From Spiribacter salilacus (lineage in GTDB: Bacteria > Pseudomonadota > Gammaproteobacteria > Nitrococcales > Nitrococcaceae): 64,000 nt of DNA. The notes beneath the pieces were generated by a model. The model was given only the letters and a program-made list of their open reading frames with translations, searched no databases and was not told the DNA's origin. The stretch lies in the NCBI RefSeq assembly GCF_009649225.1, contig NZ_WJPP01000005.1, forward strand, positions 72,001 through 136,000. Reading direction: 5' to 3'. The translations under genes were made by a program, and so were the position numbers. Positions 32,763 through 48,352 of this stretch are shown here, piece by piece (position 1 is the first letter of the stretch; each line of letters begins with the position of its first letter).

Positions 32763-32776
32763 AGGGGCATTATGCA

Positions 32777-33649
32777 TTGGCAGGTCTTCAGATCCAACAA
32801 CTTAACAAGGAAGACAGCGCCGAGTTCTGTAGCCTGACCTACCCTTCACAACGCTGGTTGCTCCTCAACCCTGGGCAGGAAAAAGTGATAGCAGTTGGCG
32901 TGCGTAGTGGCCAAGATCCGGTTGGGCTGGCGTTGGCGCACGCTAGACCTACGAGCTTTGACGAGCTCGTATCACTGTATATCAATCCTTTATTCGATAG
33001 CCCCGCTGTTCGCAACAAATTACTGGCTCAGATTGAGAAAGAATGCTCGGCCGTCGGGCTAGAGACCCTCCAATTTTTGCCCGTGGTGTGGGAGCCTTCC
33101 ATCCAATCCCTTGAATGGCTGATTGAACACGGATGGACGTATCAGGGGACGCGTCAACTGGTCTGCAAAGCGCCTGTTGATAACCTACTGGCAATTGACT
33201 GGTTACAGCGCCCGCAACTACCCGCCGGCTATCACTGCATACCGTGGTCAGAGGTCAGTGACTCATCACGGCAAACATTAAAAGACAGCCAACCCCACTG
33301 GCCGTCTTTACTTGATCCTTTTTATTTAGAAAAAGATCACTGCGACAGCGTTAGTCAGGCACTACTTGATGAAAAATCCCGTATTCGCGGCTGGCTCATC
33401 ACCCATGGTATTGACGCGCAAATCCTTCGCTGGACGGCATCTTGGGTAGATCCGCAAATCCAATCGATGACCCGCGTGTTTCCACTCTGGCGCAACGCGG
33501 CTGAAGCGCAGAAAGCCGGCAGCAAACACCCCTTAGCGACTTGGACCGTTCCGATTGGATTAGACCGGATGCAGCGTTTCACCCTCCGCCGCATCCGACC
33601 CCATCTAACCGCGCTAGGGTATGCAACCCTTTTTAGTCGGGAGCTCTAA
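32777..33649 (+). CDS. GNAT-like acyltransferase, degenerate (RiPP locus)
   Basis: A 290-residue protein. Residues about 35-130 look like a GNAT core: V-G-L-A-L-A-H, then E-L-V-S-L-Y-I-N-P, a helix with R-N-K-L-L-A-Q-I-E-K-E, and the late strand L-E-T-L-Q-F-L-P-V followed by L-E-W-L-I-E-H-G-W. The usual R/Q-x-x-G-x-G/A acyl-CoA loop is not clear. The second half (150-290) may be another, more degenerate copy. The likely start is TTG 32777, with AGGGG nine bases upstream. Its stop lies one base from the stop of the convergent precursor gene. GNAT proteins lipidate some Nif11/proteusin RiPPs (selidamides), so peptide acylation is a hypothesis. Confidence 0.6.
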   Translation: MAGLQIQQLNKEDSAEFCSLTYPSQRWLLLNPGQEKVIAVGVRSGQDPVGLALAHARPTSFDELVSLYINPLFDSPAVRNKLLAQIEKECSAVGLETLQFLPVVWEPSIQSLEWLIEHGWTYQGTRQLVCKAPVDNLLAIDWLQRPQLPAGYHCIPWSEVSDSSRQTLKDSQPHWPSLLDPFYLEKDHCDSVSQALLDEKSRIRGWLITHGIDAQILRWTASWVDPQIQSMTRVFPLWRNAAEAQKAGSKHPLATWTVPIGLDRMQRFTLRRIRPHLTALGYATLFSREL

Positions 33650-33650
33650 G

Positions 33651-33965
33651 TCACGCTACAGACGCAGCGCACACAATTTCCACCGCAGCTGGGCCACTAG
33701 CGGAGGGCGCACCGCCAGTCACGAGAACAAATTCACCAACACCGCCCTTACCGCCTGCCACTGTATCGAGCTGATCGTCGCTAAGCTCACCTTGAGCATT
33801 TGCTTGGACGTACTGTTGAGCCTCATCAACGGTAATGTCGTAGCCATGCTCTTGAGCAATGGCTACAAGCGATTCAACACCTTCAGAAGCATTCACTGCC
33901 TTTTCACGCAAAAGCTCATTCGAGGCTAAATCGCTAACAAAGCGCTCGATTTCTGCCGCGCTCAT
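33651..33965 (-). CDS. Nif11-type RiPP precursor peptide B
   Basis: A 104-residue precursor. Leader residues 1-72 are Nif11-like (SAAEIERFVSDLASNELLRE, HGYDITVDEA, ELSDDQLDTVAGG) and end in a double-glycine cleavage site. The core of about 32 residues is Gly/Ala/Val-rich: KGGVGEFVLVTGG, then APSASGPAAVE, then IVCAASVA, with one Cys near the end. It is the second of two tandem precursor genes (ATGA overlap with precursor A). It should be modified by the epimerase encoded upstream, cleaved by the C39 transporter and exported. Confidence 0.9.
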   Translation of the reverse strand: MSAAEIERFVSDLASNELLREKAVNASEGVESLVAIAQEHGYDITVDEAQQYVQANAQGELSDDQLDTVAGGKGGVGEFVLVTGGAPSASGPAAVEIVCAASVA

Positions 33966-34279
33966 GTTGCAACTACAGCAACGACGGCCGCAGTCTCAGC
34001 CGCTACCACAGCTGATGTTGCAACCTCAGCGCTTTGAACAACGTTGGTCGCAACGGCAGTCTTACCACCGGCTACAGCGTCAAGCTGATCGTCGCTCAGT
34101 TCACCTTGGGTGTTTGCCTGAATGTAATCACGTGCTTCATCAATATTGATGTCGTAGCCGTGATCTTGCGCAATCGCAACGAGTGACTCAACCCCTTCTG
34201 AGGCATTCACTACCGTTTCACGAAGGCTTTCGTTTGATGCTAAATCGTTCACAAAACGCTCGATTTCTGCCTGACTCAT
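33962..34279 (-). CDS. Nif11-type RiPP precursor peptide A
   Basis: A 105-residue precursor whose leader (1-72) matches precursor B at most positions (AEIERFV-DLASNE-LRE, VNASEGVESLVAIAQ, ELSDDQLDAVAGG). The core differs completely: about 33 residues dominated by Ala, Val and Thr (KTAVATNVV, SAEVATSAVV, AAETAAVVAVVAT), with no Cys. Near-regular small/beta-branched residues are what PoyD-type epimerases act on in polytheonamide-like peptides. AGGAG lies eight to nine bases before the ATG. It is 24 bases downstream of the radical SAM gene. Confidence 0.92.
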   Translation of the reverse strand: MSQAEIERFVNDLASNESLRETVVNASEGVESLVAIAQDHGYDINIDEARDYIQANTQGELSDDQLDAVAGGKTAVATNVVQSAEVATSAVVAAETAAVVAVVAT

Positions 34280-34303
34280 TTTGTTAACTCCTGTACAAAA
34301 AAA

Positions 34304-35818
34304 CTATGATGGATTGCCAGACAGGGCCAATGGCGTCTGTGTGGCGGTTAGAGGTGGATCACAAGCAATGCCGTAAAGCGCTGGATCATCGTTTAATAGA
34401 CCATCATCAAATAACTGCTGAAGCACGCGTTGTACAAAAAATACATCCGCTTTGTCCCGCAGTAGCTTTCGCATAATCTCTCGGCCCGTAAACCGATTTT
34501 CAGCCAGCATTGCACCTAAGGCGCCATCAAACGGCAGTTGATCACGCCAAATTTTATGGGTCCGGGTAGTCAACTCAAACCCATTTTCTATCGGCTGATA
34601 ATTTAAATCTCGCCGAAAGCCCAAAACCGTATCCATGGGTAAACGCATCGGCATGTGCCGAGCAATTAAATCCTCAATAACGGCTCTAAAATCGTCTGCA
34701 TCTGTAAAAAATCGCTCGGCATAAACGCGATAACCCAAAGGCCATAATGAATCGGCTCGAGTTGGCGTAACTAATTGGATGCGCCGGTGCAACAGATTGA
34801 CTAAGAACCCACTAACACAGGCAATCGTGGAATGGTCTTCACCAAAATAATGCTCATTATCCTCACGGCCGGCGGCTTGTCTTCGCAATCGGCGCGTCCG
34901 CGCCCGACCCGCAATGGCCTTAGTGCCAAGCGCTCCCTTTTGCTGATGAACGAGCTCAACCCCCATCAGTTCTTCAGGCGAGAAGGTTTCCATAACCGAC
35001 TTAAATATCTTGGGGGTAATGATAGAAAAACGATTAGTTACGGTGCGATAGCGATCGAATAACGACAACACTTGTTGAGTTAACTCAAGATCACGCAGAG
35101 GGGCGGCGCAAGTGGTTTGCGGCAAGGCTCCCGTTACATGGTAATAGTCTTCAATAAATTTTGGGTAATCGGGATTATCGGCCGGATCGGTAGCCCAATA
35201 ACAAAAACCGGTTTGCGTGGCGTTGCCAAAAAGATCGACCATGTGCGCCAGCATGCCTTGCCATAACTCAGCAACCTCTGGCGTGTAGGGCTGGTAGTCG
35301 CGGTAGCGCTCTGCCGAAATCCCGCAAAACCAGCAGCCAACTGAGCAACCATCTGATAACTCAAATGCAACAATCGGATGCGTGATAGAGTTTGAGGAAG
35401 CCATACCCAGTTCGCTTTCGCAGCGTTTTTGCTGGCGCATCCGCCATGCATCAAAGGCCGGGTTTATTGCTTCGCAACGCCCTAGCTCAGTCAGCATGTC
35501 GCGATGCTTCATCATGTCCGCCAGCCAGTCATCCCATAAAACGACAAGGGGCCACTTTTCTGCCTCAGCTGTGAATCGATACTGGGCATACTCAGAATGC
35601 CACAGCGGCAGTAATTCGGTTGGATCTACGCTAAGGCCGTATTGCTCGACCACAGGGTTAGGGTCGGAATGATTAGCTGTGAGCGCCTCTCGAAAGCCAG
35701 CATCACCACATAAGAACTCCATAAAGCGCTTGACGTGCGCAATTTTATTGAGCGACTCTTCACTCCGGCGTTCAAACATCCCCCGATAAAATCTAATTGC
35801 CTTAGTAATGGTCGCCAC
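34304..35818 (-). CDS. PoyD-like radical SAM peptide epimerase
   Basis: A 504-residue protein. The radical SAM cluster motif C-x3-C-x2-C is Cys158, Cys162 and Cys165 (DGCSVGCWFCGIS). Overall length, the YWATDPADNPDYPKF region and an I-A-C-V-S-G segment with Cys334 match RiPP amino-acid epimerases of the PoyD/OspD type. These abstract an alpha hydrogen with 5'-deoxyadenosyl radical and return it from a Cys thiol, turning L- into D-residues. Cys334 is a candidate donor (inference). The start is GTG with AGGGG eight bases upstream. It is followed by both precursor genes, in the same direction. Confidence 0.88.
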   Translation of the reverse strand: MATITKAIRFYRGMFERRSEESLNKIAHVKRFMEFLCGDAGFREALTANHSDPNPVVEQYGLSVDPTELLPLWHSEYAQYRFTAEAEKWPLVVLWDDWLADMMKHRDMLTELGRCEAINPAFDAWRMRQQKRCESELGMASSNSITHPIVAFELSDGCSVGCWFCGISAERYRDYQPYTPEVAELWQGMLAHMVDLFGNATQTGFCYWATDPADNPDYPKFIEDYYHVTGALPQTTCAAPLRDLELTQQVLSLFDRYRTVTNRFSIITPKIFKSVMETFSPEELMGVELVHQQKGALGTKAIAGRARTRRLRRQAAGREDNEHYFGEDHSTIACVSGFLVNLLHRRIQLVTPTRADSLWPLGYRVYAERFFTDADDFRAVIEDLIARHMPMRLPMDTVLGFRRDLNYQPIENGFELTTRTHKIWRDQLPFDGALGAMLAENRFTGREIMRKLLRDKADVFFVQRVLQQLFDDGLLNDDPALYGIACDPPLTATQTPLALSGNPS

Positions 35819-35830
35819 AACTTTGCCCCT

Positions 35831-35844
35831 ACTAAATTTTTAGT
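35831..35844. promoter_or_regulatory. Near-palindrome in the divergent rSAM/TolC promoter region
   Basis: ACTAAATTTTTAGT has 6-base complementary arms around a central pair. It lies in the 51-base gap between the divergent epimerase and tolC-like genes, 13 bases from the epimerase start. It could be a shared operator or part of an AT-rich promoter. No local regulator gene is recognised in the RiPP locus. Confidence 0.3.
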
Positions 35845-35869
35845 GATGAATTCAAGGTAAACGACGCAC

Positions 35870-37195
35870 ATGACAGTTGCAAGTATTCTTCAGAGCTACT
35901 CAAAAAAAATGACCGTTGTTGTATTCGTCGCGGCGCTAGTGGCTGTAACGGGGGAAGTGCAAGCGCAAACGCTCGCAACGCTGTTGGCGGCAACCGTTGA
36001 GAATAACCCGCGCCTATCGGCCATTCGCGAGCGTCAAACATCCAGCCAAGCGAATGTTGATGCTGCCCGTGGTCAGCGCTGGCCCACCCTGACGGTAACC
36101 GGACAAGAGGGACGACGCCATTTAGATCAGCGCACCGCCGAAGAAACACTAACCGATCGGCAAGTGCGCCTAGAACTTAACCTTGACCTGTGGCGCAGTG
36201 GGCAAATTACGGCCGGCATTGAGAAAGCGAATGCCAGCGCGGCACAAACCGATGCACAGCTTGTGCAAACGTCAATAGACGCGCTCAAAACAGTGACAAC
36301 AAACTGGTTTTCTCTACAAGGAGCACAGCAGGTCATTGCACTGCAGCGCAGTGATATTGCCGAGCGAGAAAACTTTGTTGAGGAATTAAATACGCGCGTT
36401 GAGCGCGGATTAGCCACAGTGGCCGATTTAAGTGCAGCGCAGCTGGCCGTCATTGAACAACAAACCGCGCTCCAACAAACCGAAGAGCAACGCAACCAGG
36501 CAGTGGATACCTTAGAGAACTGGACTGGACTGCGCCCGGAACAAGCCATTGGCACCGCCCGATTACCAAAAATTCCCGCTACGCTGGAGGCAGCATTAAC
36601 TCAAGCGGCACGTCATGCAGCGCAAGTTGAAATTGCCCGTGCCGCCGTTGCACAAGCTGAAGCTGAAGTGGCAGAACGCGAAGGTGCACTTGGGCCGCGA
36701 TTAAGCCTGAACGCGCATCATGGTTACGACTATGATCAAACTATTCATGAGAATGTGCTTGAGGAGCGTGCGGTCTCGCGCGAGCAATCAACCGGCGCCA
36801 TGCTTGAGCTAACCGTACCGCTAACGGATGGCGGCACCGGGCGTGCTCAGGTTCGCGCGTCTACGCACGCGCTAGCCGCCGCCCGACTTCATCAGCGCGC
36901 TGCACAAGAGGACACCGCTGCGGCGGTACGGCATAGCTGGATGAAACGCGCTGCTGCGCAACAGCGCATCACCCTACTTGAGCAGCAGCTCACGGCTGCC
37001 AAAGCACTACAGCAATCGCGCAAGCGAGAGTTTGATCAAGGCCTTAGCGACATTCAGCCACTGCTCGATGCTAACCAAAAACGCAGCAGCACCGAACAGG
37101 ATTTAATTCATGCCCGCACCACACTGCGCCAAAGTGAGGTTCAGCTGCTTGCTGATATGGGTACGCTAACGCCTGAGCGTCTTGGCCTAGAATGA
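35870..37195 (+). CDS. TolC-family outer-membrane channel (RiPP export)
   Basis: A 441-residue outer-membrane efflux protein. It has an N-terminal signal (TVVVFVAALVAVTGEVQAQ with an A-Q-A cleavage context) and two repeats of long coiled-coil helices. N-N-P-R-L occurs in the first repeat, and L-R-Q-S-E-V-Q-L-L follows near the end. It would form a trimeric channel-tunnel. Placed inside the RiPP locus and divergent from the epimerase, it completes a one-step exporter with the HlyD and ABC proteins. Its stop overlaps the MetX-like gene (ATGA). An internal ATG at residue 14 would give a shorter signal. Confidence 0.9.
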   Translation: MTVASILQSYSKKMTVVVFVAALVAVTGEVQAQTLATLLAATVENNPRLSAIRERQTSSQANVDAARGQRWPTLTVTGQEGRRHLDQRTAEETLTDRQVRLELNLDLWRSGQITAGIEKANASAAQTDAQLVQTSIDALKTVTTNWFSLQGAQQVIALQRSDIAERENFVEELNTRVERGLATVADLSAAQLAVIEQQTALQQTEEQRNQAVDTLENWTGLRPEQAIGTARLPKIPATLEAALTQAARHAAQVEIARAAVAQAEAEVAEREGALGPRLSLNAHHGYDYDQTIHENVLEERAVSREQSTGAMLELTVPLTDGGTGRAQVRASTHALAAARLHQRAAQEDTAAAVRHSWMKRAAAQQRITLLEQQLTAAKALQQSRKREFDQGLSDIQPLLDANQKRSSTEQDLIHARTTLRQSEVQLLADMGTLTPERLGLE

Positions 37196-38223
37196 CGATC
37201 ATTCAGCGGCTACCGGATCCCGTCGAACTTGATCACGGCGCACCGCTGGAAAACGTTGATGTGGCCTACTGCCGCTATGGCGAACTCAATGCAAAGCGTG
37301 ACAATGTTATTTGGCTTTGTCATGGGCTCACCAGCAATCAGCATGCTGGCCCCAATGGGTCACGCAAAGGTTGGTGGGAATCACTAATCGGACCAAGCCA
37401 ACCCCTAGATACTGACCAATGGTGCATCATTTGCAGCAATGTGTTGGGGGGAGACAGTGGCAGCACCGGCCCCAACACACCCCACCCGACTGATGCAAAG
37501 CCCTATGCCACTCGCCTACCGATACTCACTATCGCAGATATGGTTCGGGCCCAACGAGCGCTTTTAGACGGCTTGGGTGTCTCACAAATTGCCGTGTTGA
37601 TTGGTGGTTGCATGGGTGGTTTTCAGGGGCTTGAGTGGTTACGCCAGGCACCTGAGCGGGTATCTCGCAGTCTGTTGATTAGTACTACCGCGGCCTCTAG
37701 CCCAATGACCATTGCGATGTGGGCGATGATTCGCCGACTCATCCTGACCGACCGTGACGAGGGTATGGGCTTAGGCGCTGCACTTGGATCGCTTTTTTGG
37801 TTAGGCAAAGAAGGGATGGAAAACCGCTTTGGCCGTGCAGTCATCGCGCCTGATCAGCCGGTAACCTTTAAACCGTATTTTGCCGTAGAGCAGTTTCTTG
37901 AAGATATCATTGCGCGCAAAGCCGGTGGCATGGACCCCAACAGCCTGCTGTACCTGACCCGTGCCATGGATCTATTTGATATGAATAACGCCATAACCCG
38001 CTTAACCGGGCCCGTTGAGCTGGTCAGTTATCAGCGTGACTGGCGGTATCCGCCTGACCAAGTAGAGACCCTGAAAACACAGCTTGAGGCTGCCGGTGCT
38101 GCCGTCAAACATCATGTGCTTGATAGCAAAACCACCCACGGCGCCTATATCTTTGAGCCAGACACCATTGCACCAATCATTAAATCAGCACTCATTAACG
38201 GCACGCCTAACAAATCTTGCTGA
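37192..38223 (+). CDS. MetX-like alpha/beta hydrolase with Cys nucleophile
   Basis: A 343-residue alpha/beta-hydrolase of the homoserine O-acetyltransferase (MetX) group: W-L-C-H-G-L-T-S-N near the oxyanion region, and the elbow I-G-G-Cys140-M-G-G-F-Q. The elbow is GGSMGG in MetX, so the catalytic Ser is replaced by Cys. Asp283 (DWRYPPDQ) and His316 (KTTHGAY) complete a triad with the MetX-like 33-residue Asp-His spacing. A true MetX for methionine synthesis would normally keep Ser. Its place between tolC and the RiPP methyltransferase suggests a tailoring acyl transfer, hydrolysis or ligation on the peptide; substrate unknown. Its 3' end overlaps the convergent methyltransferase gene by 79 bases. 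Confidence 0.85.
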   Translation: MTIIQRLPDPVELDHGAPLENVDVAYCRYGELNAKRDNVIWLCHGLTSNQHAGPNGSRKGWWESLIGPSQPLDTDQWCIICSNVLGGDSGSTGPNTPHPTDAKPYATRLPILTIADMVRAQRALLDGLGVSQIAVLIGGCMGGFQGLEWLRQAPERVSRSLLISTTAASSPMTIAMWAMIRRLILTDRDEGMGLGAALGSLFWLGKEGMENRFGRAVIAPDQPVTFKPYFAVEQFLEDIIARKAGGMDPNSLLYLTRAMDLFDMNNAITRLTGPVELVSYQRDWRYPPDQVETLKTQLEAAGAAVKHHVLDSKTTHGAYIFEPDTIAPIIKSALINGTPNKSC

Positions 38224-39542
38224 AGGTCTTTGATTGATACGGTCGATAATCCGGCCAACTCCGCACACCGGCGATGAAACGCCTGCTCCACCAAATGTTG
38301 CCCCGACAAGGTGTGCGTAATATCGGTGGCCAATAGCGGATGTGAGTCTAGGTTTTTGCCAAGCAGCACCGGATCGATCGCATGCGGCTCAAGCATCACC
38401 CACCCATGACGCTGCACCCAAGGCAGCCAGCGTTGAAATGCCGCCACCAAATCAGCACCCATCTGCCCGGCCGTTAGCTGCTCAAATGCTTGATTAAGAT
38501 GCACCGCACACGACGAATGCACAACCGCATCATCTAGCTCATCAGGCTGGCCCAACACGGCACGATTGTGCATCACCGATTTACTCACATGCAGGCAATC
38601 CTGCATTTCAATATCATGTTCTTTTAAAGCCAGCGCGATGGCCTCGGGATGATTAATATCCCCTGGCAACACCAACCCACCAATAGGATCAAGGCGCGTT
38701 TGGCATAGCCGGCGGGCTGGCGCACTCGGCTCAACAGCTACCAATCGCGGCGGCGTATGGCCTGCCTTAACAAACGCCGAATGCAGCCCCAGCAGCAATG
38801 CCCCATTACCCGCCCCCGTATCCACAATGGCCTGCGGTCTATTCGGCGCTATGTGCATTGCCTCCATGACCAACTCGCAAACCGCATTATGGCAATGGGT
38901 TTCATAAACGACCGCGCTAAACGCGATATCTGCAGCGCGCTCCACGTGCCACTCATCGCCGCTAGCATCAAACCCCGGCTTTCGATGAGCGTGGATTGCA
39001 AACACATCACGCAGACCCGATAGCAACGGCGCATAGCCTGCCACGTAGATACTTTGCGCGGCCATGGGCATACCCGCCCGCCCCGTTTGATTGAGGGCAA
39101 AGCCCTTCGTGCTTTCGGTAACCCAGCCCAAAGGGGCCAGCTGCTGCAGTACCTGCCGCCATATCTGCTCTGTGATGCCGCAACCTGCGGCTAAACGTTG
39201 AACTGCCCCTTGCTCAGCCAACCGCGCCAGGGCAACCAATGCGTTTAATGCAGACCGTCCCTGAGCCGCAGTGATGGTGTTTGGGGTTGTTAACTCCAAC
39301 CCTTCAGCTGAAACACCGCCCCAGCCGAGCACCTCAAACCAGCGCCCAACGCAGGCCAGCAAACCCGCATGCGTGTGATGCCGCTCGGCAAGTACCGCAA
39401 GTGGAATTGGCCCATCCGCCGCGCGTAGCGCATGCCACACGCCATTGTGCTCAAGGGCATCAACCACCGAGCCCATCGCCGCTTGATTAATCGCACAACA
39501 AAGCGATTGCCATGCCCGTTGCTGCGTTTCGGTTAAGCTCAT
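38145..39542 (-). CDS. Class I SAM-dependent methyltransferase (RiPP locus)
   Basis: A 465-residue protein. A helical/winged N-domain (1-190), like those of dimeric O-methyltransferases, is followed by a Rossmann methyltransferase domain with motif I VDTGAGNGALLLGL at about 235 and an acidic residue after the next strand (VAVEPS). The late H-G-W-V-M-L-E-P-H segment resembles post-II motifs. It is the last gene of the leftward export operon (ATGA overlap with the NHLP-type ABC gene). It may methylate the peptide or an attached group. The last 26 codons lie antisense to the end of the MetX-like gene; both frames look genuine. Confidence 0.8.
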   Translation of the reverse strand: MSLTETQQRAWQSLCCAINQAAMGSVVDALEHNGVWHALRAADGPIPLAVLAERHHTHAGLLACVGRWFEVLGWGGVSAEGLELTTPNTITAAQGRSALNALVALARLAEQGAVQRLAAGCGITEQIWRQVLQQLAPLGWVTESTKGFALNQTGRAGMPMAAQSIYVAGYAPLLSGLRDVFAIHAHRKPGFDASGDEWHVERAADIAFSAVVYETHCHNAVCELVMEAMHIAPNRPQAIVDTGAGNGALLLGLHSAFVKAGHTPPRLVAVEPSAPARRLCQTRLDPIGGLVLPGDINHPEAIALALKEHDIEMQDCLHVSKSVMHNRAVLGQPDELDDAVVHSSCAVHLNQAFEQLTAGQMGADLVAAFQRWLPWVQRHGWVMLEPHAIDPVLLGKNLDSHPLLATDITHTLSGQHLVEQAFHRRCAELAGLSTVSIKDLQQDLLGVPLMSADLMIGAMVSGSKI

Positions 39543-42238
39543 GCCAGCTGGCGATTGGCAAGCGCTGCAAACAACCCTTGCTGATCCATCAACGTGGCAA
39601 AGTCACCCACCTCGCCCACGCGCCCGTCTTGCAGCACATAGATACGATCGGCCGCGCGAATGGTACTGAGTCGATGGGCAATGACAATTCGCGTACACGC
39701 CAAAGACGCAACGCTCTCGCTAACAATGGCTTGTGTGCGATTGTCCAATGCCGAGGTTGCCTCGTCAAAAATCACCACGCGCGGTCGGCGCACCAGTGCA
39801 CGAGCAATCATTAAACGCTGCCGCTGCCCGCCAGAAAGGGTAGTTGCCCCTTCGCTAAGAAACGTGTGAAGGCCCATGGGCATCGCCTTGATATCGGCAT
39901 CGAAGCCAGCCATGCGGGCCGCTTCCCACGCGGCATCTTCATCAACATCACTGCCCGCGGCAATATTATGAAAGATGGACCCAGACAATAGCCGCCCCTG
40001 CTGCAACACCACGCCAAACTGATAACGAACCGCGCGTCGGTCCAGCGTTGCCAAGTCCTTATCATCAACAAATACACTCCCGCTCCATGGCTGCTCAAAG
40101 CCAAGCAACAGACGAATCAAGGTTGACTTACCCGCGCCGGATGGCCCAACGATGGCAACAAACTCACCGGGGTCCGCTCGCAACGATAATCCTTTAAGCA
40201 CTGGCGGTGATTGTTCTGAGTAGCCAAAAACCACATCGTGTAAATCAATGGCCCCCTGAATTGGCCCGGGATCTGCCTGATCGGGTGCCTGCTCGGTGGG
40301 TGCTTCAAGGATAGGGCGCACACGCTCGTAAAGGGGGGGCAGGTTGGTGAGCTGAATGGCCACGCTCGTTAAACCAAATACCGCGGCAATAAATTGTCCA
40401 AAGGCCACATGAAAGGCCACAAAATGGCTGGTTGGCATCACCTGTTGGAGCTGACCCGCTGCTGCACGACCTACATCAGGCGACTCAAACACCGCCAACA
40501 GAGCACCACTTTGCAAACCAATCACCGCTAACACGGCCCCCAGCGCCAAGGGGTGGAACCCCGCTTTTAAAACGCTTAACCAATTCTGCAAATTGACATG
40601 CTGAAAATTAAGCCCCATTAAAGTGCCATAAGGCCGCCCCCACTGAGCAAATGCGCTGCGCTCAGCGCCCGCCACACGCAGGCGAGATAGCCCCCCTAGC
40701 AACTGCAACACCAGCCCTTGCAGCTGCCCTTGCAACGCTAATGTTTGCCGATAGATTTTTATTACCTGCTGCCCAATGCCATACGCAATTGCCATATAGA
40801 TCAGGGCAAATAACAGCGCGCCCGCAGACAGTTGCCAGTCGTACCAAACCATCAAGCCAAAGCTAAACAGCCCAATCACCGCATGCGATAACGAACCGAT
40901 TAAAGAGCCGGTGAGTAGCTTACGAATAGAGTTAATGCTCATGGCTCGATTGGCCAAATCGCCTACCGCATATTCTCGGAAAAACGCCGCCTCAAGCTTT
41001 AACAACCGATCCCAGACGGCGGCCTGCACGCGGTAGTCCATCGCCCCTTCCATGCGCAACGACGAAAAAGCGCGCACTAAGCCAAAAGTTGCCATGGCCA
41101 CGGCTAAGGTGATGAGTGCCGCAATTAACACGGTCAGTTGATGCAGCTGAGCTTCGGGGATAACGGGATCCATAATCCAACCGGTGACCACCGGTGTGGC
41201 CAGTGACAGGATGCCAGCCAATAGCAGCATGAGCCCAATCCGCCTGAAATCCTGCGCACAACCGGTCAAACTAAAACGCAACAAATCAGCGGGCCCCGTT
41301 TTACCCTCGGGTAGCGGCATGAAGACATAAAAGGCCTGACGTGCAATGTCGGCAGCCTGCGCCGCCGTGACTACCTGATCACCGGCTTGCGGGGTCCACA
41401 TGCGATAGTGTTGATGGCCATCGGGGATAAGTGCCAGTGGATTATTCGCTTTATCAAAGCCTATTAAAGGACCATGATCATTGTTCCACCAGCCTGTTTG
41501 CAGATGGACTGCACGCTTTTGTAGCCCTGCGCGCGCCGTCATCGCAGACAATGGATCGTGGCTGCTTAAGGCTCTGGTTTCTGCCTCAGGTTTTAAATCG
41601 AGCACACCACCTTGGGCTTTAACGACATGGGCAAGCACCGCGGCAAGATCTCCGCGTGCGGCATCAGCGGCGTCACCCGCTAAGCGGCCTCGCAAACCCT
41701 GCGATAGCGCACCGATGGCATCTCGAAAACCGCGGGATCGATTTTGCGCGGTACGTTCTATGGCGTCTGATCGTGCTTGCTCTGCCTCAACCGCACGCGC
41801 TGTTACAGATTCAATGATGGCGGCCAGCCGCGCGGCAATCTGCTCTGAATCGGGCTGACAAGGCTCCGCTGGCCCGGCAAACGCAGCACAGGCTTCATCC
41901 AAGGCTCGGCATAAAGCAGCCTGCCCAGCAGTATCAGCAGCTGCAAGCACACTTGACCAATCGATCGATACCGTACGGGTTGGCTGTGCAGGTACCGCCA
42001 CCAAGCGCGCGCCCTTTGGCGTTTCTGGCATGCCAGGCAACACCGTGCCTGCCTCACGCGTAAATAAGTAATGACGCTGAGTGATTGGCCCAGGCGGCTC
42101 TAGGAATACATCCAAACACCCGTCAATAATCACCTGCATCGTGCCGACTGCAGGGGTGAGTCGATCACGCCCAGACCATACCTGCTCTGTGCGCTGGGCG
42201 CTGTCTGAAAGCCCTAATTGCGCCAGTAAATCACTCAT
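39539..42238 (-). CDS. NHLP-type bacteriocin ABC transporter (type 2, no peptidase)
   Basis: An 899-residue permease-ATPase. It begins with a degenerate cyclic-nucleotide-binding-like domain (1-110; V-I-I-D-G-C-L-D-V-F and later E-A-G-T-V-L-P), then a long linker, six membrane helices (about 340-630), and an ATPase with G-P-S-G-A-G-K-S-T, LSGGQRQRLMIARAL and VIFDEATSALD. This is the partner that accompanies peptidase-containing exporters in Nif11/NHLP RiPP loci. Start and stop overlap neighbours by ATGA. It probably forms a heterodimer with the C39 transporter. Confidence 0.9.
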   Translation of the reverse strand: MSDLLAQLGLSDSAQRTEQVWSGRDRLTPAVGTMQVIIDGCLDVFLEPPGPITQRHYLFTREAGTVLPGMPETPKGARLVAVPAQPTRTVSIDWSSVLAAADTAGQAALCRALDEACAAFAGPAEPCQPDSEQIAARLAAIIESVTARAVEAEQARSDAIERTAQNRSRGFRDAIGALSQGLRGRLAGDAADAARGDLAAVLAHVVKAQGGVLDLKPEAETRALSSHDPLSAMTARAGLQKRAVHLQTGWWNNDHGPLIGFDKANNPLALIPDGHQHYRMWTPQAGDQVVTAAQAADIARQAFYVFMPLPEGKTGPADLLRFSLTGCAQDFRRIGLMLLLAGILSLATPVVTGWIMDPVIPEAQLHQLTVLIAALITLAVAMATFGLVRAFSSLRMEGAMDYRVQAAVWDRLLKLEAAFFREYAVGDLANRAMSINSIRKLLTGSLIGSLSHAVIGLFSFGLMVWYDWQLSAGALLFALIYMAIAYGIGQQVIKIYRQTLALQGQLQGLVLQLLGGLSRLRVAGAERSAFAQWGRPYGTLMGLNFQHVNLQNWLSVLKAGFHPLALGAVLAVIGLQSGALLAVFESPDVGRAAAGQLQQVMPTSHFVAFHVAFGQFIAAVFGLTSVAIQLTNLPPLYERVRPILEAPTEQAPDQADPGPIQGAIDLHDVVFGYSEQSPPVLKGLSLRADPGEFVAIVGPSGAGKSTLIRLLLGFEQPWSGSVFVDDKDLATLDRRAVRYQFGVVLQQGRLLSGSIFHNIAAGSDVDEDAAWEAARMAGFDADIKAMPMGLHTFLSEGATTLSGGQRQRLMIARALVRRPRVVIFDEATSALDNRTQAIVSESVASLACTRIVIAHRLSTIRAADRIYVLQDGRVGEVGDFATLMDQQGLFAALANRQLA

Positions 42239-44403
42239 GCCTCACCTACCAATGCGGCATAACGTCCGTTAAGCGCAATCAAATCTTCATGGGTGCCCCG
42301 TTCTATGACCTTGCCATGCTCGAGCATGATAATTTCATCCGCGTCCCTAACCGTGCTTAAACGGTGCGCAACTATCACGCAGGTACAGCCACGTCGGCGT
42401 AGTGCCCGATCAATTTGCGCCTCCGTTACCGGATCTAGCGCGGCCGTGGCCTCATCAAGCACCAAAACAGCGGGGTCTCGTATCAGCGCGCGTGCAATCT
42501 CAATCCGCTGGCGCTGTCCGCCGCTAAAGTTGTCACCCCCCTCGCTGACCGCCTCTAAATACCCACCAGGGCGAGAAGCAATCAGCTCATGAATCATCGC
42601 ATCCTGAGTTGCCCGTCGCATTGCCGCATCAGTCACACTGTCATCCCACAGCGTCAGGTTGTCGCGTATTGTGCCGGCAAACAAAATACATTCCTGGTCT
42701 ACTGAGGCAATGTCGCGAGTGGCAAGCCGCCGGGGCAAATCAAATAGCGGCACATCGTCATAAAGCACCGTGCCCGACTGCGGCACCAAAAGCCCGGTCA
42801 TCAACTTCGCCAGCGTTGATTTGCCGCTACCTGAGCCCCCCACCAACGCCACCCGTTGCCCAGGCTTTAGTTTAAGCGAAAACCCCTCAATTAAAGGCGG
42901 CTCTGCCGGGGAGTAGCCAAAAGTAATGTCTTTGAGTTCTACTCGTCCGCTAAGCGGCGTCAATGACGGCTGCGTTTTATCGTCTGGTGGCTCGGTCAGC
43001 AGCGGATCTTGGGGGTTATCGAGCACATCATCTAATCGATCTAAATCGCCCTCAATCTCCTGTAGTTGGGAGCCGAGCCCAACCAAATGCTTGATAGGCG
43101 TGGTGACATGAACGGTAAGCGCCTGAAACGCAATGAGTGCGCCAATCGTGAGCTGACCCTTCATAATTAACAGCGCACCACCGCCTAAGACGAGAGCAGA
43201 CATTAAATGGTCCAAAAAAGACGGTACACCTTCTAGCACAGACGTGGTTGCCGATAGCTGTTGCTGCGTATTGACGGTTCTCGTTTGATAACCCGACCAG
43301 AGTGAAAAGAAATCACTTTCAGTGCCCGAGGCTTTGAGCGTTTCCATTGCTTGTAGGCCAGCCATTGCAGCGCCCTGAGACTTTCCACTGGTGTTAAGCA
43401 GGCTGGCATTTAAATCACGCCGACGGCGTTGGGCAAACTGCAAGGCCGCAATGTTGGTGAACGTAAGGGCAAATACCAACACGGTAAGCTGCCAGCTAAA
43501 CAACAGCATCACTAACCCAAAAAAACCAATCATTAAGGCGTGAATTACCGTGGTTGGTAACGGCCCGGCCAGCAAACTGGCTAACCGATGGCAGGATTGG
43601 ACGCGAGCGGCAACATCCCCAATGTAGCGCTGCGCATAAAAGCTCACCGGCAAACGCAGCGTATGCCAGAAAAACTCGCTGGCAATGGTGACGCCCAATT
43701 TCATTTGCATTTTAAGTAAGTAGCGCTGCTGCACCCAGGTCAGAAAAGCGCTAAATGCCCCACTAAAGATAAGACCGACCACCAGCACAAACACCCAGTT
43801 GCTGTAGCCGCGAATTAAAACATCGTCAATAAACGTTTTTATGAGTGCCGGCTGCACTAAGCCAGGAACTACGAGCAACAAGGTAAATAACATAACAATG
43901 CTGGCTGCGTCCCCCGAACCACGCAAACGGGGAAGCAACTTTGGCAAGAGCTTGGGTCGCTCGCCACCGGGCTCAAACTCTGGGCCCGGCTTAAAGGTAA
44001 GCATGACGCTGCTAAAGCTCTCTTCAAAATCCTCGCGCGATACCTGACGCGGGCCACTACCCGGATCATTCAAATAAACCCGATCGCCCTTAACTCCTTC
44101 CACCACCACAAAATGGCTGACATTCCAAAAGGCAATAAAAGGCTCACCCGCTGTTAACGCCTCGTCGGCCGTTGTGCGAACACCCTTGGTTTCTAACCCA
44201 TAACGCCGTGCGGCCTTAACGATATTGCTTGCCTTTGCCCCGTCGCGCGAGACCGCGCAATCGTTTCGCAGTTGCTCTAGCGGCACGCGGCGGCCATGAA
44301 ACTGCAAAATGCTGGCTAGCGCAGCCGCCCCACATTCCACTGCCTCCATCTGCAACCGGGTTGGAGTGCGGAAACGCCAGTGTGTCTTGCTGCTAGCCGC
44401 CAT
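42235..44403 (-). CDS. Peptidase-containing ABC transporter (C39, NHLP-type)
   Basis: A 722-residue PCAT. The C39 peptidase domain (1-140) has Cys24 (QMEAVECGAAAL), His97 (NVSHFVVV) and Asp113 (LNDPGSG). It cleaves after the double glycine of Nif11 leaders such as those encoded at 33.6-34.3 kb. Six helices follow (about 165-440), then an ATPase with G-G-S-G-S-G-K-S-T, FSGGQRQRIEIARAL and VLVLDEATAALDP. It overlaps the HlyD gene by 11 bases and the second ABC gene by four, so the three are co-expressed. Confidence 0.95.
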   Translation of the reverse strand: MAASSKTHWRFRTPTRLQMEAVECGAAALASILQFHGRRVPLEQLRNDCAVSRDGAKASNIVKAARRYGLETKGVRTTADEALTAGEPFIAFWNVSHFVVVEGVKGDRVYLNDPGSGPRQVSREDFEESFSSVMLTFKPGPEFEPGGERPKLLPKLLPRLRGSGDAASIVMLFTLLLVVPGLVQPALIKTFIDDVLIRGYSNWVFVLVVGLIFSGAFSAFLTWVQQRYLLKMQMKLGVTIASEFFWHTLRLPVSFYAQRYIGDVAARVQSCHRLASLLAGPLPTTVIHALMIGFFGLVMLLFSWQLTVLVFALTFTNIAALQFAQRRRRDLNASLLNTSGKSQGAAMAGLQAMETLKASGTESDFFSLWSGYQTRTVNTQQQLSATTSVLEGVPSFLDHLMSALVLGGGALLIMKGQLTIGALIAFQALTVHVTTPIKHLVGLGSQLQEIEGDLDRLDDVLDNPQDPLLTEPPDDKTQPSLTPLSGRVELKDITFGYSPAEPPLIEGFSLKLKPGQRVALVGGSGSGKSTLAKLMTGLLVPQSGTVLYDDVPLFDLPRRLATRDIASVDQECILFAGTIRDNLTLWDDSVTDAAMRRATQDAMIHELIASRPGGYLEAVSEGGDNFSGGQRQRIEIARALIRDPAVLVLDEATAALDPVTEAQIDRALRRRGCTCVIVAHRLSTVRDADEIIMLEHGKVIERGTHEDLIALNGRYAALVGEA

Positions 44404-45640
44404 TGTGTGGCGAGACCCAGTTTCTCAGCGTAGGAATAAGCAGTTGAATAGGGCTTGCACGGCGGGTAATAACGGCTGCTGTTGCCAGCGACCCGCTTGT
44501 TATCTGCGTTGGCGGGCCAAAGGACGAAGACCAAGCAAGGCCACTGGGTGCGGCTTTATCAGGCAGTAAATCGATATGCACCTCTAACGGCGCGCCTGCC
44601 TTGGTCAGTTCATTAACCAGTTGCTCGTTGCCCAAACGGTTGAGTAATGCAGGTTGCGTTGCCGGAAAGGCACTCACAAATGAGACTTTGCCAATCATTG
44701 CGCCATACACGTCGCGCTCTATATTTTCAGGCGATACCTGCGCGCTCATGCCAGTGGTCACGTTTTTGCCCTGACCCGCGGGAAAATAGCCCACCAGCTG
44801 CAGCTGGCCATCCTGACCCTCAATCACGGCAAATTGATCCCCTGCGTTCACCCGATCGCCACGTTTTTGAGCAATCGCCACCACCACGCCGGCTGCCGGT
44901 GCGCGAACAAACTGCTCCGCGGCTACAGCGGCCAATAATTCTTCTATCTGGTTTTGCTCTCGGGTGAGTGACTCTGTAAGCGATGCCAATTGATCTTGCT
45001 GGCTAGCTTTGAACTGCAAAAGCTCCAACTGGATTTTTGCCATCTGATCACGGCTCTGGCGAATAGACTGCTCAGTTTGATGCAGCTCGCGTCGCGTTGC
45101 CTCGACGCGCTCACGCGTAACAAAACCCGCCGCCAAATCCTCACGCTGATCAGCCAGCAACGCTTGCAGATAATCTCGATGCTCCGCATCGTCATCCACC
45201 TGCTGCTGCAAGGTCATTATCCGCTGATCCGCATTATCTTGGCGCTGTTTTAAAAGCTGAGCCTGACTGGCCTGCAAATCAGATATTCTTGTCTCTAGCT
45301 GATCGACCAGCCGACGTGATGCGGCAATACGCGTTGCCCGCTCTGACTGGCTGATTTTTGCTACCAAGGCGTTGGCTTCTACCTCGTCGCCCACCGAAAC
45401 GGCAATTTCTTCGACCACGCCTGCGCCGGGGGCTGCCACCGAATAAACACTCGCATCAGAATAGAGCAGCACCCCACGCCCCTCAGACCGATAGTCGATT
45501 TGGCCAAAAAACCCCCACGCAATAAACGCGCCCACTAACAACGTGCTAATGGCCGCAATCAGCCAAGTAAATGGACGTGTTAGCTTTAATGCGGTGGACA
45601 GTTGTTCAGGATCACCGCGCGATGGTGACTTAGCCCCCAT
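44393..45640 (-). CDS. HlyD-family NHLP bacteriocin secretion adaptor
   Basis: A 415-residue adaptor. It has one TM helix (about 27-47), then a lipoyl half around V-A-A-P-G-A-G-V-V, long coiled-coil helices (about 105-235, Gln/Arg/Asp-rich) and a second lipoyl half V-R-A-P-A-A-G-V-V. It connects the two ABC proteins to the TolC-like channel encoded at 35870. The ATG has a strong AAGGAG. The upstream wbpL-like gene ends only 30 bases before it on the same strand, so read-through from the polysaccharide operon is possible. Confidence 0.9.
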   Translation of the reverse strand: MGAKSPSRGDPEQLSTALKLTRPFTWLIAAISTLLVGAFIAWGFFGQIDYRSEGRGVLLYSDASVYSVAAPGAGVVEEIAVSVGDEVEANALVAKISQSERATRIAASRRLVDQLETRISDLQASQAQLLKQRQDNADQRIMTLQQQVDDDAEHRDYLQALLADQREDLAAGFVTRERVEATRRELHQTEQSIRQSRDQMAKIQLELLQFKASQQDQLASLTESLTREQNQIEELLAAVAAEQFVRAPAAGVVVAIAQKRGDRVNAGDQFAVIEGQDGQLQLVGYFPAGQGKNVTTGMSAQVSPENIERDVYGAMIGKVSFVSAFPATQPALLNRLGNEQLVNELTKAGAPLEVHIDLLPDKAAPSGLAWSSSFGPPTQITSGSLATAAVITRRASPIQLLIPTLRNWVSPHNGG

Positions 45641-45670: not shown

Positions 45671-46708
45671 CTAGCACGACTGCCCCGCCCTTCCGCAAAC
45701 CGCCAACAGCGTGAGCAAACCCGTTATTAAAATCACGGTGGGCAGCGCCGGGATTGCACCGGCTGCCAGCAGCCAGGCGGCGGGCAGCAGAAAAACCAGG
45801 TTGATGAGTAACACGAGTAATGTGACACGGGTATGACCCCATTTGGCGGCCGCATGCTGATAGGCATGGCTGCGATGAGCTTCGGTTATACGCTCGCGGC
45901 GGGCGGTGCGCACGAGCAAGGTGGCCGTGGCGTCTATCCAAAAGATGGCAGATAGCACAATGCCGCTCCAAAACAGCAGTGGCGCGGCATGGGCGGCCAG
46001 TAACACCAGCGCGCCAAGCAATAGCCCGAGTAAGCCACTGCCGGCATCGCCCATAAAAATACGCGCGGTGGGAAAGTTCCAGGGCAAAAAGCCCAGCGCA
46101 CCGGCGGCAATCAGGCCGCCCAGCGCTACTACCGCGGGATAAGGGCCCAGCATGAGGGCCATTAATGCCAAGCCGCCGGCCACGGTAAACGCCTCAATAC
46201 CGGCAATGCCGTTAATGCCATCCATAAAGTTAAATAGATTCAGCATCCAAATCAGATACACCCAGGCCAGTGCATGGCCAATCAGGCCAAAATCAACTAG
46301 CTGACCAGCAATCGGGATAGGCGGCAGCCCACCTAATGTAAAAAGCACTATCGCCGCGGCTAGCGCATGCGCCACCAACCGCCAGCGCGCAGGAATATCG
46401 CCCATGCGATCGTCCCACCAGCCTGCGGCCGCCACTATCAAACCCGCTGCCATCAGGCCGATGCCAGGCTTAAGCGGCAAATAACCCCCCAGTAACAGCA
46501 GCGGCAGGCCCAGCAGCACGATTGCCACAATTGCCAGCCCGCCGCCGCGCGGCGTGGGCTCGGTGTGGGAGCGCCGGGCACCGGGCTGATCCAGCATCTG
46601 ACGGCTGGTAGCGTAGCGCCGCACCACACCCACCAAAACCGCCGTAATGCCCACCGCCACCCACAGGGCTGGCGCCAGCCAAATCAGCCCAATATGCCCC
46701 TCAGCCAT
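45671..46708 (-). CDS. WecA/WbpL-like polyprenyl-phosphate sugar-1-P transferase
   Basis: A 345-residue GT4-type integral membrane enzyme with about eleven helices. Motifs of the MraY/WecA superfamily are present: A-A-G-W-W-D-D-R (metal Asp pair), LFNFMDGINGIAG, PTARIFMGDAGSG, and the R-R-E-R-I-T-E-A-H-R-S-H-A-Y-Q-H His-rich loop typical of WbpL. It would start a glycan on undecaprenyl phosphate with a UDP-HexNAc made through the FlaA1/WbpM-like and WbpV-like enzymes. It overlaps the next upstream gene by eight bases. Confidence 0.93.
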   Translation of the reverse strand: MAEGHIGLIWLAPALWVAVGITAVLVGVVRRYATSRQMLDQPGARRSHTEPTPRGGGLAIVAIVLLGLPLLLLGGYLPLKPGIGLMAAGLIVAAAGWWDDRMGDIPARWRLVAHALAAAIVLFTLGGLPPIPIAGQLVDFGLIGHALAWVYLIWMLNLFNFMDGINGIAGIEAFTVAGGLALMALMLGPYPAVVALGGLIAAGALGFLPWNFPTARIFMGDAGSGLLGLLLGALVLLAAHAAPLLFWSGIVLSAIFWIDATATLLVRTARRERITEAHRSHAYQHAAAKWGHTRVTLLVLLINLVFLLPAAWLLAAGAIPALPTVILITGLLTLLAVCGRAGQSC

Positions 46709-47615: not shown

Positions 47616-48352
47616 GGCAATCGCCCTAGGTGTTTGAAGAAATAGCGAGCGATGCTAAGGGCATGCCAACGCATATAGCCTAAGTTGCGGCGGCTTGTGC
47701 GCTGAGCATCGTGGATTACTTCGGCTTCTGGGACGAGCAGAACTTTCCAGCCTGCACGCCAGAGTCTGGCGCAAATATCAACGTCCTCGTAATACAGATG
47801 GAAGCCCTCATCAAACCCACCAATCGAGGCAAACGCTTCTTGGCGAAAGAGCATGCACATCCCCCCAACCCAGTCTACGGCTTGCGGATCTGTGCCAGAA
47901 ACCGGCGCACGCCCGTCAGCCGCGCCCAGTGCTTTTGCAACGAGATCATGGAATCTTGGGAAATTGCGCGCATTGTCCTCAACCTCACCAGATGGTGAAC
48001 GCACCAAAGGCGCAACGACACCCACATCCGGTTGCTTCAATGCATCAAGCAGGGCAGGAAAGGGATCGGTAGGCATACGCAAATCAGGGTTGATGACACC
48101 AAAAAAAGACGCCTTTGAGCGCTGAAAAACCGCGTTATGATTAGCACCAAACCCTGCTGGCTGAGTGTTTTCAGTCACATCAAGCCACTGATCTAATAAC
48201 AAATGTGCTGGTAAGGAGCCCGGGCAATTGGCCGTAATGCTTATCTGCACGTTTTCAGGCAATTTGCGCAGATCTTGGAGCAAATGCGCTAATAACGCCT
48301 GCTGCCCATGGCTAACAACGGATAACCTTAGGTTGCCTTCACCCTCGCGCAC
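47612..48352 (-). CDS. Family 2 glycosyltransferase (WbbL rhamnosyltransferase-like)
   Basis: A protein of about 246 residues with GT2 features: LRLSVVSHGQQ, G-F-G-A-N-H-N, the I-N-P-D-L-R metal-binding region, V-D-W-V-G-G-M-C-M-L-F-R and the F-D-E-G-F-H-L-Y-Y-E-D-V-D acceptor/base segment. The layout resembles WbbL-type dTDP-rhamnose transferases, in line with the rfb operon. The start is uncertain. GTG 48352 gives a 14-base overlap with the upstream gene; TTG 48367 is an alternative. No ATG is available. Confidence 0.85.
   Translation of the reverse strand: MREGEGNLRLSVVSHGQQALLAHLLQDLRKLPENVQISITANCPGSLPAHLLLDQWLDVTENTQPAGFGANHNAVFQRSKASFFGVINPDLRMPTDPFPALLDALKQPDVGVVAPLVRSPSGEVEDNARNFPRFHDLVAKALGAADGRAPVSGTDPQAVDWVGGMCMLFRQEAFASIGGFDEGFHLYYEDVDICARLWRAGWKVLLVPEAEVIHDAQRTSRRNLGYMRWHALSIARYFFKHLGRLP

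What the first reader, a model, noticed from the sequence alone, without database searches (positions are those of the whole stretch)
32777..45640. A complete, apparently undescribed D-amino-acid RiPP system with its own export line
Seen: two Nif11-type precursors ending in VAGG, a PoyD-like radical SAM epimerase, a C39-peptidase ABC transporter, an NHLP type-2 ABC transporter, a HlyD adaptor, a TolC, and extra tailoring candidates (GNAT-like, Cys-nucleophile MetX-like, methyltransferase). Known: Nif11 leaders and PoyD/OspD epimerases make peptides with D-residues, and NHLP exporters cleave at GG. The combination with a MetX-like Cys enzyme and a dedicated TolC is, to my knowledge, not a described type. 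Inferred product: a modified, secreted peptide of about 32-33 residues.
Basis: partly seen in the sequence, partly recalled or inferred. Interest (0 to 1): 0.88.

Follow-up and report, generated by a model that had tools for sequence, protein, structure and literature searches.

The report
Acylated D-peptide cluster with unstudied enzymes
The window holds a gene cluster that probably makes and exports a small peptide with mirror-image amino acids and an attached acyl group, and similar clusters with the same two puzzling extra enzymes turn up in several unrelated bacteria.

Summary
Two Nif11-leader precursors (cores 32 and 33 aa after VAGG) sit with a PoyD-family epimerase (509 bits, cut-off 325), a tandem GNAT, a TolC, a MetX-like protein, a methyltransferase and an NHLP exporter set. 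It is not a one-off: a congener and a gammaproteobacterium of another family keep precursor-epimerase-TolC-MetX-methyltransferase in the same order, and of 50 genomes with a related epimerase 21 carry this methyltransferase and 21 the GNAT. The GNAT is best read as a selidamide-type acyltransferase for core Lys1: in a hand table of 40 epimerase loci, Lys follows GG in 16 of 16 with GNAT and 5 of 24 without, and a published tandem GNAT, NpuN, acylates exactly that Lys (PMC13060382 passages). The methyltransferase is of the AprA MT1/SxtA metal-dependent C-methyltransferase type; the MetX-like protein has Cys for Ser (15 of 15). My paper searches showed neither in a RiPP pathway. The parts are of known kinds; the combination and this pair look new. 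No chemistry was tested.

The parts
32777..33649 (+). Tandem GNAT acyltransferase (290 aa, TTG start uncertain; the open frame begins at 32765), predicted Lys1 N-acyltransferase
   Evidence: 31% identity over 284 aa to the GNAT in the Mesorhizobium epimerase cluster; AF2 pLDDT 89.7, Foldseek best hits are tandem GNATs
33651..33965 (-). Precursor P1, Nif11 leader (33750-33965) and 32-aa core (33654-33749) KGGVGEFVLVTGGAPSASGPAAVEIVCAASVA; atypical core
   Evidence: TIGR03798 45.5 bits, PF07862; core read
33962..34279 (-). Precursor P2, Nif11 leader (34064-34279) and 33-aa core (33965-34063) KTAVATNVVQSAEVATSAVVAAETAAVVAVVAT; typical V/A/T-rich core
   Evidence: TIGR03798 42.1 bits; similar cores in the congener and other families
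34304..35818 (-). PoyD-family radical SAM peptide epimerase, CSVGCWFC motif
   Evidence: TIGR04517 509 bits; the three Cys invariant in the three-sequence alignment
35870..37195 (+). TolC-family outer-membrane channel
   Evidence: PF02321; same position in two other gammaproteobacterial clusters
37192..38223 (+). MetX-like alpha/beta protein with Cys in the nucleophile elbow (Cys140, Asp283, His316)
   Evidence: below all MetX cut-offs listed; Cys in 15 of 15 cluster homologues, Ser in 13 of 14 housekeeping-type loci read, one without a pattern match; separate from housekeeping MetX with 100/100 support
38145..39542 (-). AprA MT1/SxtA-type metal-dependent C-methyltransferase
   Evidence: PF23525 138.6 bits; phmmer to AprA MT1 4.9e-23; Foldseek best SxtA and AprA MT1
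39539..42238 (-). NHLP ABC transporter without peptidase (ABC2)
   Evidence: TIGR03797 799.5 bits, cut-off 709.4
42235..44403 (-). NHLP ABC transporter with C39 peptidase (ABC1), GG leader cleavage
   Evidence: TIGR03796 974 bits, cut-off 853; PF03412
44393..45640 (-). HlyD-type NHLP adaptor
   Evidence: TIGR03794 259 bits, cut-off 156

Best explanation
The cluster makes a secreted, hydrophobic, acylated D-amino-acid peptide. Inferred order: (1) P2 and P1 are translated with a Nif11 leader that recruits the enzymes; (2) the PoyD-family radical SAM enzyme inverts several Val/Ala residues of the core (inferred from family); (3) the tandem GNAT puts an acyl group on the side chain of the first core residue, Lys1 (inferred from co-occurrence and the NpuN precedent); (4) the MetX-like Cys protein and the AprA-type methyltransferase act as a pair on an acyl unit, most likely attached to the C-terminal Thr/Ser hydroxyl and C-methylated (weakest step, my guess at about 0.25); (5) the C39 domain of ABC1 cuts after GG and the peptide leaves through ABC1/ABC2-HlyD-TolC (inferred from families). 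Relatives with a B12 radical SAM C-methyltransferase would add C-methyl groups as well; none was found in this genome. Shown here: the genes, their families, conserved order, and the correlations. Not shown: any chemistry, product or activity.
For: Family scores over curated cut-offs. Conserved order in the congener and in a gammaproteobacterium of another family, whose genome also has the GNAT beside HlyD- and ABC1-type genes on another contig. Overlapping gene sets with Nif11 precursors in Microvirga, Roseibium, Rhodospirillaceae, deltaproteobacterial and Binatia loci. Of 19 distinct epimerase loci with the MetX-like gene (22 hits less two doubled contigs and one housekeeping-like copy in L035), 16 show the methyltransferase on the held stretch; for the other three (L043, L051, L083) it is elsewhere in the genome. 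Lys1 against GNAT: 16 with and 5 without GNAT among Lys1 cores, 0 with and 19 without among others (hand table). NpuN, a tandem GNAT, acylates Lys1 and not Lys3 of a Nif11 precursor (PMC13060382 passages); my GNAT profile finds in Scytonematopsis a GNAT with a LanM and a Nif11 precursor with core KKKCLG..., a nostolysamide-like set. The MT model's best matches are SxtA and AprA MT1, then MrsA, a Streptomyces hygroscopicus methyltransferase (MppJ by recall) and SgvM. Cores in MT-bearing genomes end in T/S in 32 of 35, against 11 of 26 elsewhere (hand table). Mesorhizobium, with the same type of core but no MT, ends in Ile. The PoyD relative EreD epimerises alternating Val/Ala (PMC9259500 passages).
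Against: No product, mass or expression data. P1 has an atypical core ending in Ala. Five Lys1 loci lack a found GNAT (L049 has a fragment, L115 is from a 1.7-Mb MAG, L050/L052/L053 are Bradyrhizobium). Two GNAT loci without epimerase that I met later, L118 and L120 in Scytonematopsis, have precursor-like frames whose cores start SRKRN and ENSRN, not Lys, so Lys1 is not universal for this GNAT family. Four GNAT-bearing loci or genomes (L106, L112, L113, L116) had no precursor I could identify and were left out. In the congener G008 (74% complete) no GNAT was found. The T/S correlation is not corrected for relatedness. AprA and SxtA act on ACP-bound malonyl, and none of the ten cluster proteins scanned has a carrier domain. 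The genome has a second Nif11 system with what reads as its own exporter (by eye).
Confidence: 0.6

Rival explanations
1. The MetX-like and methyltransferase pair does not touch the peptide; it makes a small metabolite or serves self-protection, and merely travels with the cluster.
For: MetX and AprA-type enzymes normally act on small or carrier-bound substrates (titles; passages); the MetX-like gene overlaps TolC and is convergent to the methyltransferase, not in line with the precursors.
Against: The pair accompanies the epimerase in 16 of 19 distinct loci with the MetX-like gene on the held stretch, across several classes of bacteria, and the methyltransferase is in 0 of the 12 rhizobial (Rhizobium-type nodulating genera) genomes among the 50 searched, whose cores often end differently.
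Confidence: 0.25
2. The GNAT acylates the freed N-terminal amine or an unrelated substrate (self-resistance), not the Lys1 side chain.
For: PMC13060382 notes GNATs that serve self-resistance and N-terminal lipidation in microvionin-type peptides (passages); L118 and L120 have GNATs but no Lys1.
Against: Lys1 goes with GNAT in the hand table, whereas an N-terminal amine needs no Lys; the NpuN precedent is side-chain Lys1.
Confidence: 0.2
3. The PoyD-family enzyme does another radical SAM reaction, or is inactive, so no D-residues are made.
For: Family assignment is by sequence; no solved relative was found.
Against: Score far above the curated cut-off of the epimerase model, intact CxxxCxxC, V/A-rich core like the characterised EreA.
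Confidence: 0.1
4. Decaying locus: loss of the B12 methyltransferase marks a cluster on its way out in this small genome.
For: No B12 radical SAM homologue found in the genome (the tool warns that an empty answer without a positive control shows nothing); 12 of 13 congeners searched lack the epimerase.
Against: All ten frames are open in the window; the part seen in G008 (both precursors, one cut off, epimerase at 89% identity, TolC, MetX-like, methyltransferase, end of ABC2) is open too; the same block without the B12 gene occurs in a different family.
Confidence: 0.1

Closest known systems
Nostolysamide (npu) and selidamides
   Same: Nif11 leader, predicted GG cleavage by a C39 exporter, tandem GNAT, Lys at core position 1 (PMC13060382 passages)
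   Different: They are lanthipeptides with LanM; here no LanM is among the cluster proteins, and an epimerase, MetX-like enzyme and AprA-type methyltransferase are added
Polytheonamide, aeronamide, pythonamide (PoyD, AerD, EreD)
   Same: PoyD-family epimerase, long V/A-rich core, AVAGG/VAGG cleavage site (PMC9505594 and PMC9259500 passages; aeronamide by recall)
   Different: NHLP leaders, B12 C-methyltransferase or N-methyltransferase; here a Nif11 leader, no B12 enzyme, GNAT present
AprA MT1 and SxtA methyltransferase domains
   Same: Fold, and His/Gln columns invariant in the cluster family align with His/Gln of AprA; SxtA has Gln at one of them
   Different: Those are polyketide synthase loading domains acting on malonyl-ACP; here a free protein in a peptide cluster without a carrier domain found
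MetX homoserine acyltransferase
   Same: Near full-length homology
   Different: Cys for Ser nucleophile, below all MetX cut-offs listed, separate clade
Rhizobial Nif11-epimerase-B12 radical SAM loci, some with GNAT
   Same: Core and epimerase similar, GNAT homologous in Mesorhizobium
   Different: No AprA-type methyltransferase in the 12 rhizobial genomes searched; several lack GG or a nearby exporter

Membership tests
Nif11-leader RiPP precursors | Nif11 leader over TIGR03798 cut-off, GG before a variable core | tested here: met
   leaders end VAGG
PoyD-type radical SAM peptide epimerase | TIGR04517 over cut-off with CxxxCxxC | tested here: met
PoyD-type radical SAM peptide epimerase | L to D inversion in a core | not testable with these tools
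   needs D2O labelling
Proteusins | nitrile-hydratase-like leader (PMC9505594 passages) | tested here: not met
   no TIGR03793 match for either precursor at E 0.001; a Verrucomicrobial relative, L101, does have the NHLP leader
Selidamides | tandem-type GNAT beside a precursor | tested here: met
   direct comparison with NpuN or PhaN not done, their sequences were not held
Selidamides | acyl-accepting Lys/Orn in the core | tested here: inconclusive
   Lys1 in both cores and correlated with GNAT; acylation not measured
Selidamides | fatty acyl on the side chain | not testable with these tools
   needs mass spectrometry
AprA MT1/SxtA-type C-methyltransferase | fold and sequence | tested here: met
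AprA MT1/SxtA-type C-methyltransferase | metal-site residues | tested here: inconclusive
   H325, H387, H410, Q415 invariant in 14 of 14 and aligned with AprA His/His/His/Gln; SxtA has Gln in the H410 column; their role as ligands is recalled, not from a call
AprA MT1/SxtA-type C-methyltransferase | carrier-bound malonyl substrate | tested here: inconclusive
   no carrier domain in the ten cluster proteins scanned; smaller frames not scanned; one relative, Facilibium, has a C-A-PCP-TE protein in the operon
MetX homoserine acyltransferase | Ser nucleophile and score over a MetX cut-off | tested here: not met
NHLP export system | ABC1, ABC2 and HlyD over cut-offs | tested here: met

The most novel reading that the evidence does not exclude
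Starter-unit chemistry of polyketide synthases has been moved onto ribosomal peptides: the Cys MetX-like enzyme loads an acyl (malonyl-type) group on the C-terminal Thr/Ser of the core and the AprA-type methyltransferase C-methylates it, capping a D-amino-acid peptide that is also acylated at Lys1. The V/A/T core would be a portable modifiable tail: the same kind of tail follows Nif11 leaders, an NHLP leader (L101), and in Methylococcaceae a B-lectin domain without GG (L043, L045, L048), suggesting lectins with an enzymatically remodelled tail.
Probability: 0.2. Interest if true: 0.85.

Novelty: new variant of a known kind. Interest (0 to 1): 0.6.

Why it matters
It would join D-residues and side-chain acylation in one ribosomal peptide type, and it gives a concrete, widely distributed set in which to find out what an AprA-type C-methyltransferase and a Cys MetX-like enzyme do in a peptide pathway. 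A 2024 review of RiPP methyltransferases says that all the C-methyltransferases it describes are radical SAM enzymes (PMC11285071 passages).

Tried and rejected
Rejected: that the cluster is unique to the window; that it is a proteusin by leader; that the MetX-like gene is the housekeeping MetX, since the genome has another with GGSLGG. A B12 methyltransferase elsewhere in the genome was looked for and not found (without a positive control). Led nowhere: viral contigs for the GNAT; plasmid tblastn with the methyltransferase gave three partial matches, one PKS and two unannotated; solved relatives of the epimerase; tandem-repeat scan empty, promoter and terminator scans near the shuffled means; the pdb_via library. 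The AprA and GNAT structure papers were not held.

Rows dropped or unequal in the hand tables; loci without a recognisable GG leader were left out (degenerate rhizobial loci, Methylococcaceae, L084, L087), except L051, kept as 'no Lys1'; the congener L039 (contig ends) was left out, as was the plasmid locus L033 (Lys1 with GNAT); L106, L112, L113, L116 were left out because no precursor was found. GNAT for L073 and L090 was counted from the whole genome, whereas L094 (52.7-bit fragment) and L104 (three GNATs in other loci, L118-L120) were counted as lacking one locally. L052, L053, L060, L086, L095, L102 and L114 were not given to the genome search and were judged on the held stretch. L109's GNAT is weak (43.8 bits, 92.5). 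Short GNAT fragments exist in Bradyrhizobium loci: up to 66 bits by single sequence in L061, L063, L081, L082, L086, but 16 bits or less with the profile in L056, L061, L081, L086; L056 and L086 are in the table as lacking GNAT. The lineage-collapsed tables, also grouped by hand, gave p 2e-5 and 2e-4; cores within one locus (eight from L047) are not independent; left out were one L047 core of another type (ends in Ser), a second L048 tail (Thr), and MT-free cores of L107 (Gly) and L109 (Pro, Arg).
Full report
What is there. On the minus strand HlyD, ABC1, ABC2 and a methyltransferase overlap end to start (44393-45640, 42235-44403, 39539-42238, 38145-39542). On the plus strand TolC (35870-37195) overlaps a MetX-like gene (37192-38223), which overlaps the methyltransferase tail to tail. 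The epimerase (34304-35818, minus) is divergent from TolC and is followed by P2 (33962-34279) and P1 (33651-33965), whose start overlaps the stop of P2. A GNAT gene (32777-33649, plus) meets P1 tail to tail. Flanking genes at 45671-48367 read as polysaccharide genes (my reading, not searched).

Families. Precursors, epimerase and the three exporter genes exceed curated cut-offs; TolC does not exceed its TIGR cut-off but matches Pfam OEP. The GNAT has no Pfam match itself, but aligns at 31% over 284 aa with the GNAT of a Mesorhizobium huakuii locus of Nif11 precursor, epimerase, GNAT and radical SAM protein, and its model (pLDDT 89.7) matches tandem GNATs such as 2wpw. The methyltransferase matches PF23525, AprA MT1 by phmmer (4.9e-23), and its model (pLDDT 85.6) has SxtA and AprA MT1 structures as its seven best hits, followed by MrsA, Streptomyces hygroscopicus methyltransferase entries (MppJ by recall) and SgvM among others. 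A held paper states that SxtA is an iron-dependent C-methyltransferase that methylates malonyl-ACP and that AprA dimethylates (PMC10784701 passages). The MetX-like protein keeps Asp283 and His316 (17 of 17 rows that reach them) and has Cys140: Cys in 18 of 18 in the first alignment (with two doubled contigs) and 15 of 15 in A5. Of 14 housekeeping-type loci read, 13 show GGSLGG, including this genome's own second copy, and one did not match the pattern. The cluster copies separate from the housekeeping ones with 100/100 support (28 rows), although the Facilibium row has a long branch.

Distribution. Of 40 genomes searched, this one and one congener (G008) have the epimerase. Of 59, the same two have a near full-length methyltransferase match and one more has a 25% match inside a 2420-aa frame. 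A single-sequence search for the GNAT found only this genome among 59; G008's assembly is 74% complete. In the class sample 3 of 369 genomes, this one included, have the epimerase. One of them, G115, has precursor, epimerase, TolC, MetX-like with GGCLGG and methyltransferase in the window's order on a 5.9-kb contig. The scan of genome contigs with the epimerase alignment matched 152 stretches, of which 90 encode a relative; the best 80 gave 78 loci. Profile searches of these found MetX-like genes in 19 distinct loci (window included; two doubled contigs and a housekeeping-like copy in L035 set aside): 16 with the methyltransferase and 13 with a B12 radical SAM enzyme on the held stretch. They come from Microvirga, Rhodospirillaceae MAGs, Roseibium, Methylococcaceae, Defluviicoccus, deltaproteobacterial and Binatia MAGs, other alphaproteobacterial MAGs and Facilibium. 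At whole-genome level the methyltransferase is in 21 of 50 and the GNAT in 21 of 50 of these genomes at E 1e-10, some of the weaker GNAT matches being fragments or distant. The B12 enzyme is TIGR03975 (709 and 704 bits in two examples). It is absent from the window cluster and the G008 and G115 contigs, from the held part of L057, L059 (cut at MetX) and L091, and no match was found in this genome.

Cores. Cores with an intact GG in the methyltransferase-bearing loci mostly start with Lys and a short polar or His-rich stretch, then carry repeats such as VQTAEVATTAVEAAEVATT, then a Val-rich end and Thr; those of L067, L071 and L083 start with Gly. P2 and its G008 counterpart are both 33 aa with 20 identical positions. 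P1 is a different core, as are extra precursors in L047 and L115.

GNAT and Lys1. In the hand table, 16 loci have Lys1 and a GNAT, 5 have Lys1 without, none lacks Lys1 with a GNAT, 19 lack both (Fisher 3e-7; collapsed to lineages 2e-5). The unequal rules and dropped rows are told in Tried and rejected. Against: two further GNAT loci without epimerase, L118 and L120, have precursor-like frames without Lys1. Independent support: NpuN of Nostoc punctiforme, a predicted tandem GNAT, acylates Lys1 of the Nif11 precursor NpuA, shown by K1A/K3A variants (PMC13060382, passages only). The GNAT profile found in Scytonematopsis a GNAT with a LanM (969.7 bits) and a Nif11 precursor whose core starts KKKC. 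I did not hold NpuN's sequence, so direct homology to NpuN was not tested.

The methyltransferase/MetX-like pair. In MT-bearing genomes 32 of 35 cores end in Thr or Ser, against 11 of 26 in MT-free ones (p 4e-5, hand table, not corrected for relatedness). The cleanest contrast is Microvirga and Roseibium (AAVLT, with the pair) against Mesorhizobium (AAVLI, without MT). MetX enzymes acylate the hydroxyl of homoserine (established knowledge), so a Thr/Ser hydroxyl is a plausible acceptor, and AprA-type enzymes methylate malonyl units. This is why I propose an acyl cap on the C terminus that is C-methylated. It is a guess: no carrier domain was found in the ten cluster proteins scanned, although the Facilibium operon has a condensation-adenylation-carrier-thioesterase protein between ABC2 and the methyltransferase.

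Unexpected tails. In three Methylococcaceae loci no Nif11 precursor was found; instead proteins with a B-lectin domain (Pfam match in the L043 and L048 copies scanned; L045 by sequence likeness) end in the same kind of V/A/T tail (AETTTTAAAEAEV...AVIVLT) close to the epimerase, with no GG before the tail. In Verrucomicrobial L101 the tail follows an NHLP leader.

Literature. Searches for Nif11 with homoserine O-acetyltransferase (0 papers), for AprA MT1-type enzymes (2 and 4 papers, none on RiPPs by title), for selidamides, and for epimerase, Nif11, proteusin, Microvirga, Roseibium, MetX and lectin combinations showed no description of this cluster in the listings. Only open-licence papers are held, so absence is weak evidence. 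I saw passages of PMC9505594, PMC10127204, PMC10784701, PMC11285071, PMC8120280, PMC9259500 and PMC13060382, and listings otherwise; no paper was read whole.

Verdict. A real, complete and widely conserved RiPP cluster, a new variant that joins the selidamide-type GNAT and PoyD-type epimerase kinds, with a conserved enzyme pair whose function in peptide pathways I found no study of.

Noticed in passing
L043 8344-9273 (lectin) and 9292-9741 (short frame, same tail), L045 8719-9273, L048 2873-3418: B-lectin-type proteins whose C-terminal tail is the same kind of V/A/T-rich core, close to a PoyD-type epimerase, with no Nif11 leader and no GG before the tail.
   Followed up: partly
L091 4601-8455: Facilibium subflavum operon holds an NRPS-like C-A-PCP-TE protein between the NHLP-type exporter and the AprA-type methyltransferase.
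   Followed up: partly
L008 1259-10024 (this genome, contig C1): Second Nif11 system of the same genome: five Nif11 frames, three with NPFKKxFW near the end, beside what read by eye as HlyD, two ABC transporters and an AraC-like regulator; no maturation enzyme seen in the stretch.
   Followed up: no
L035 9071-11948: Sinorhizobium meliloti plasmid with four tandem Nif11 genes of this core type whose GG site is degenerate, next to epimerase and B12 radical SAM enzyme.
   Followed up: no
window 29764-30362: Two small overlapping minus-strand genes that look like a VapBC-type toxin-antitoxin pair just outside the cluster (read by eye, not searched).
   Followed up: no
L044 13550-14770, L047 11604-12914: An OsmC-domain protein of about 400 aa next to the GNAT (Pfam match for L044; L047 similar by eye).
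   Followed up: no
L047 5079-13389: One Rhodospirillaceae locus with nine Nif11 frames of very different cores around one epimerase.
   Followed up: no
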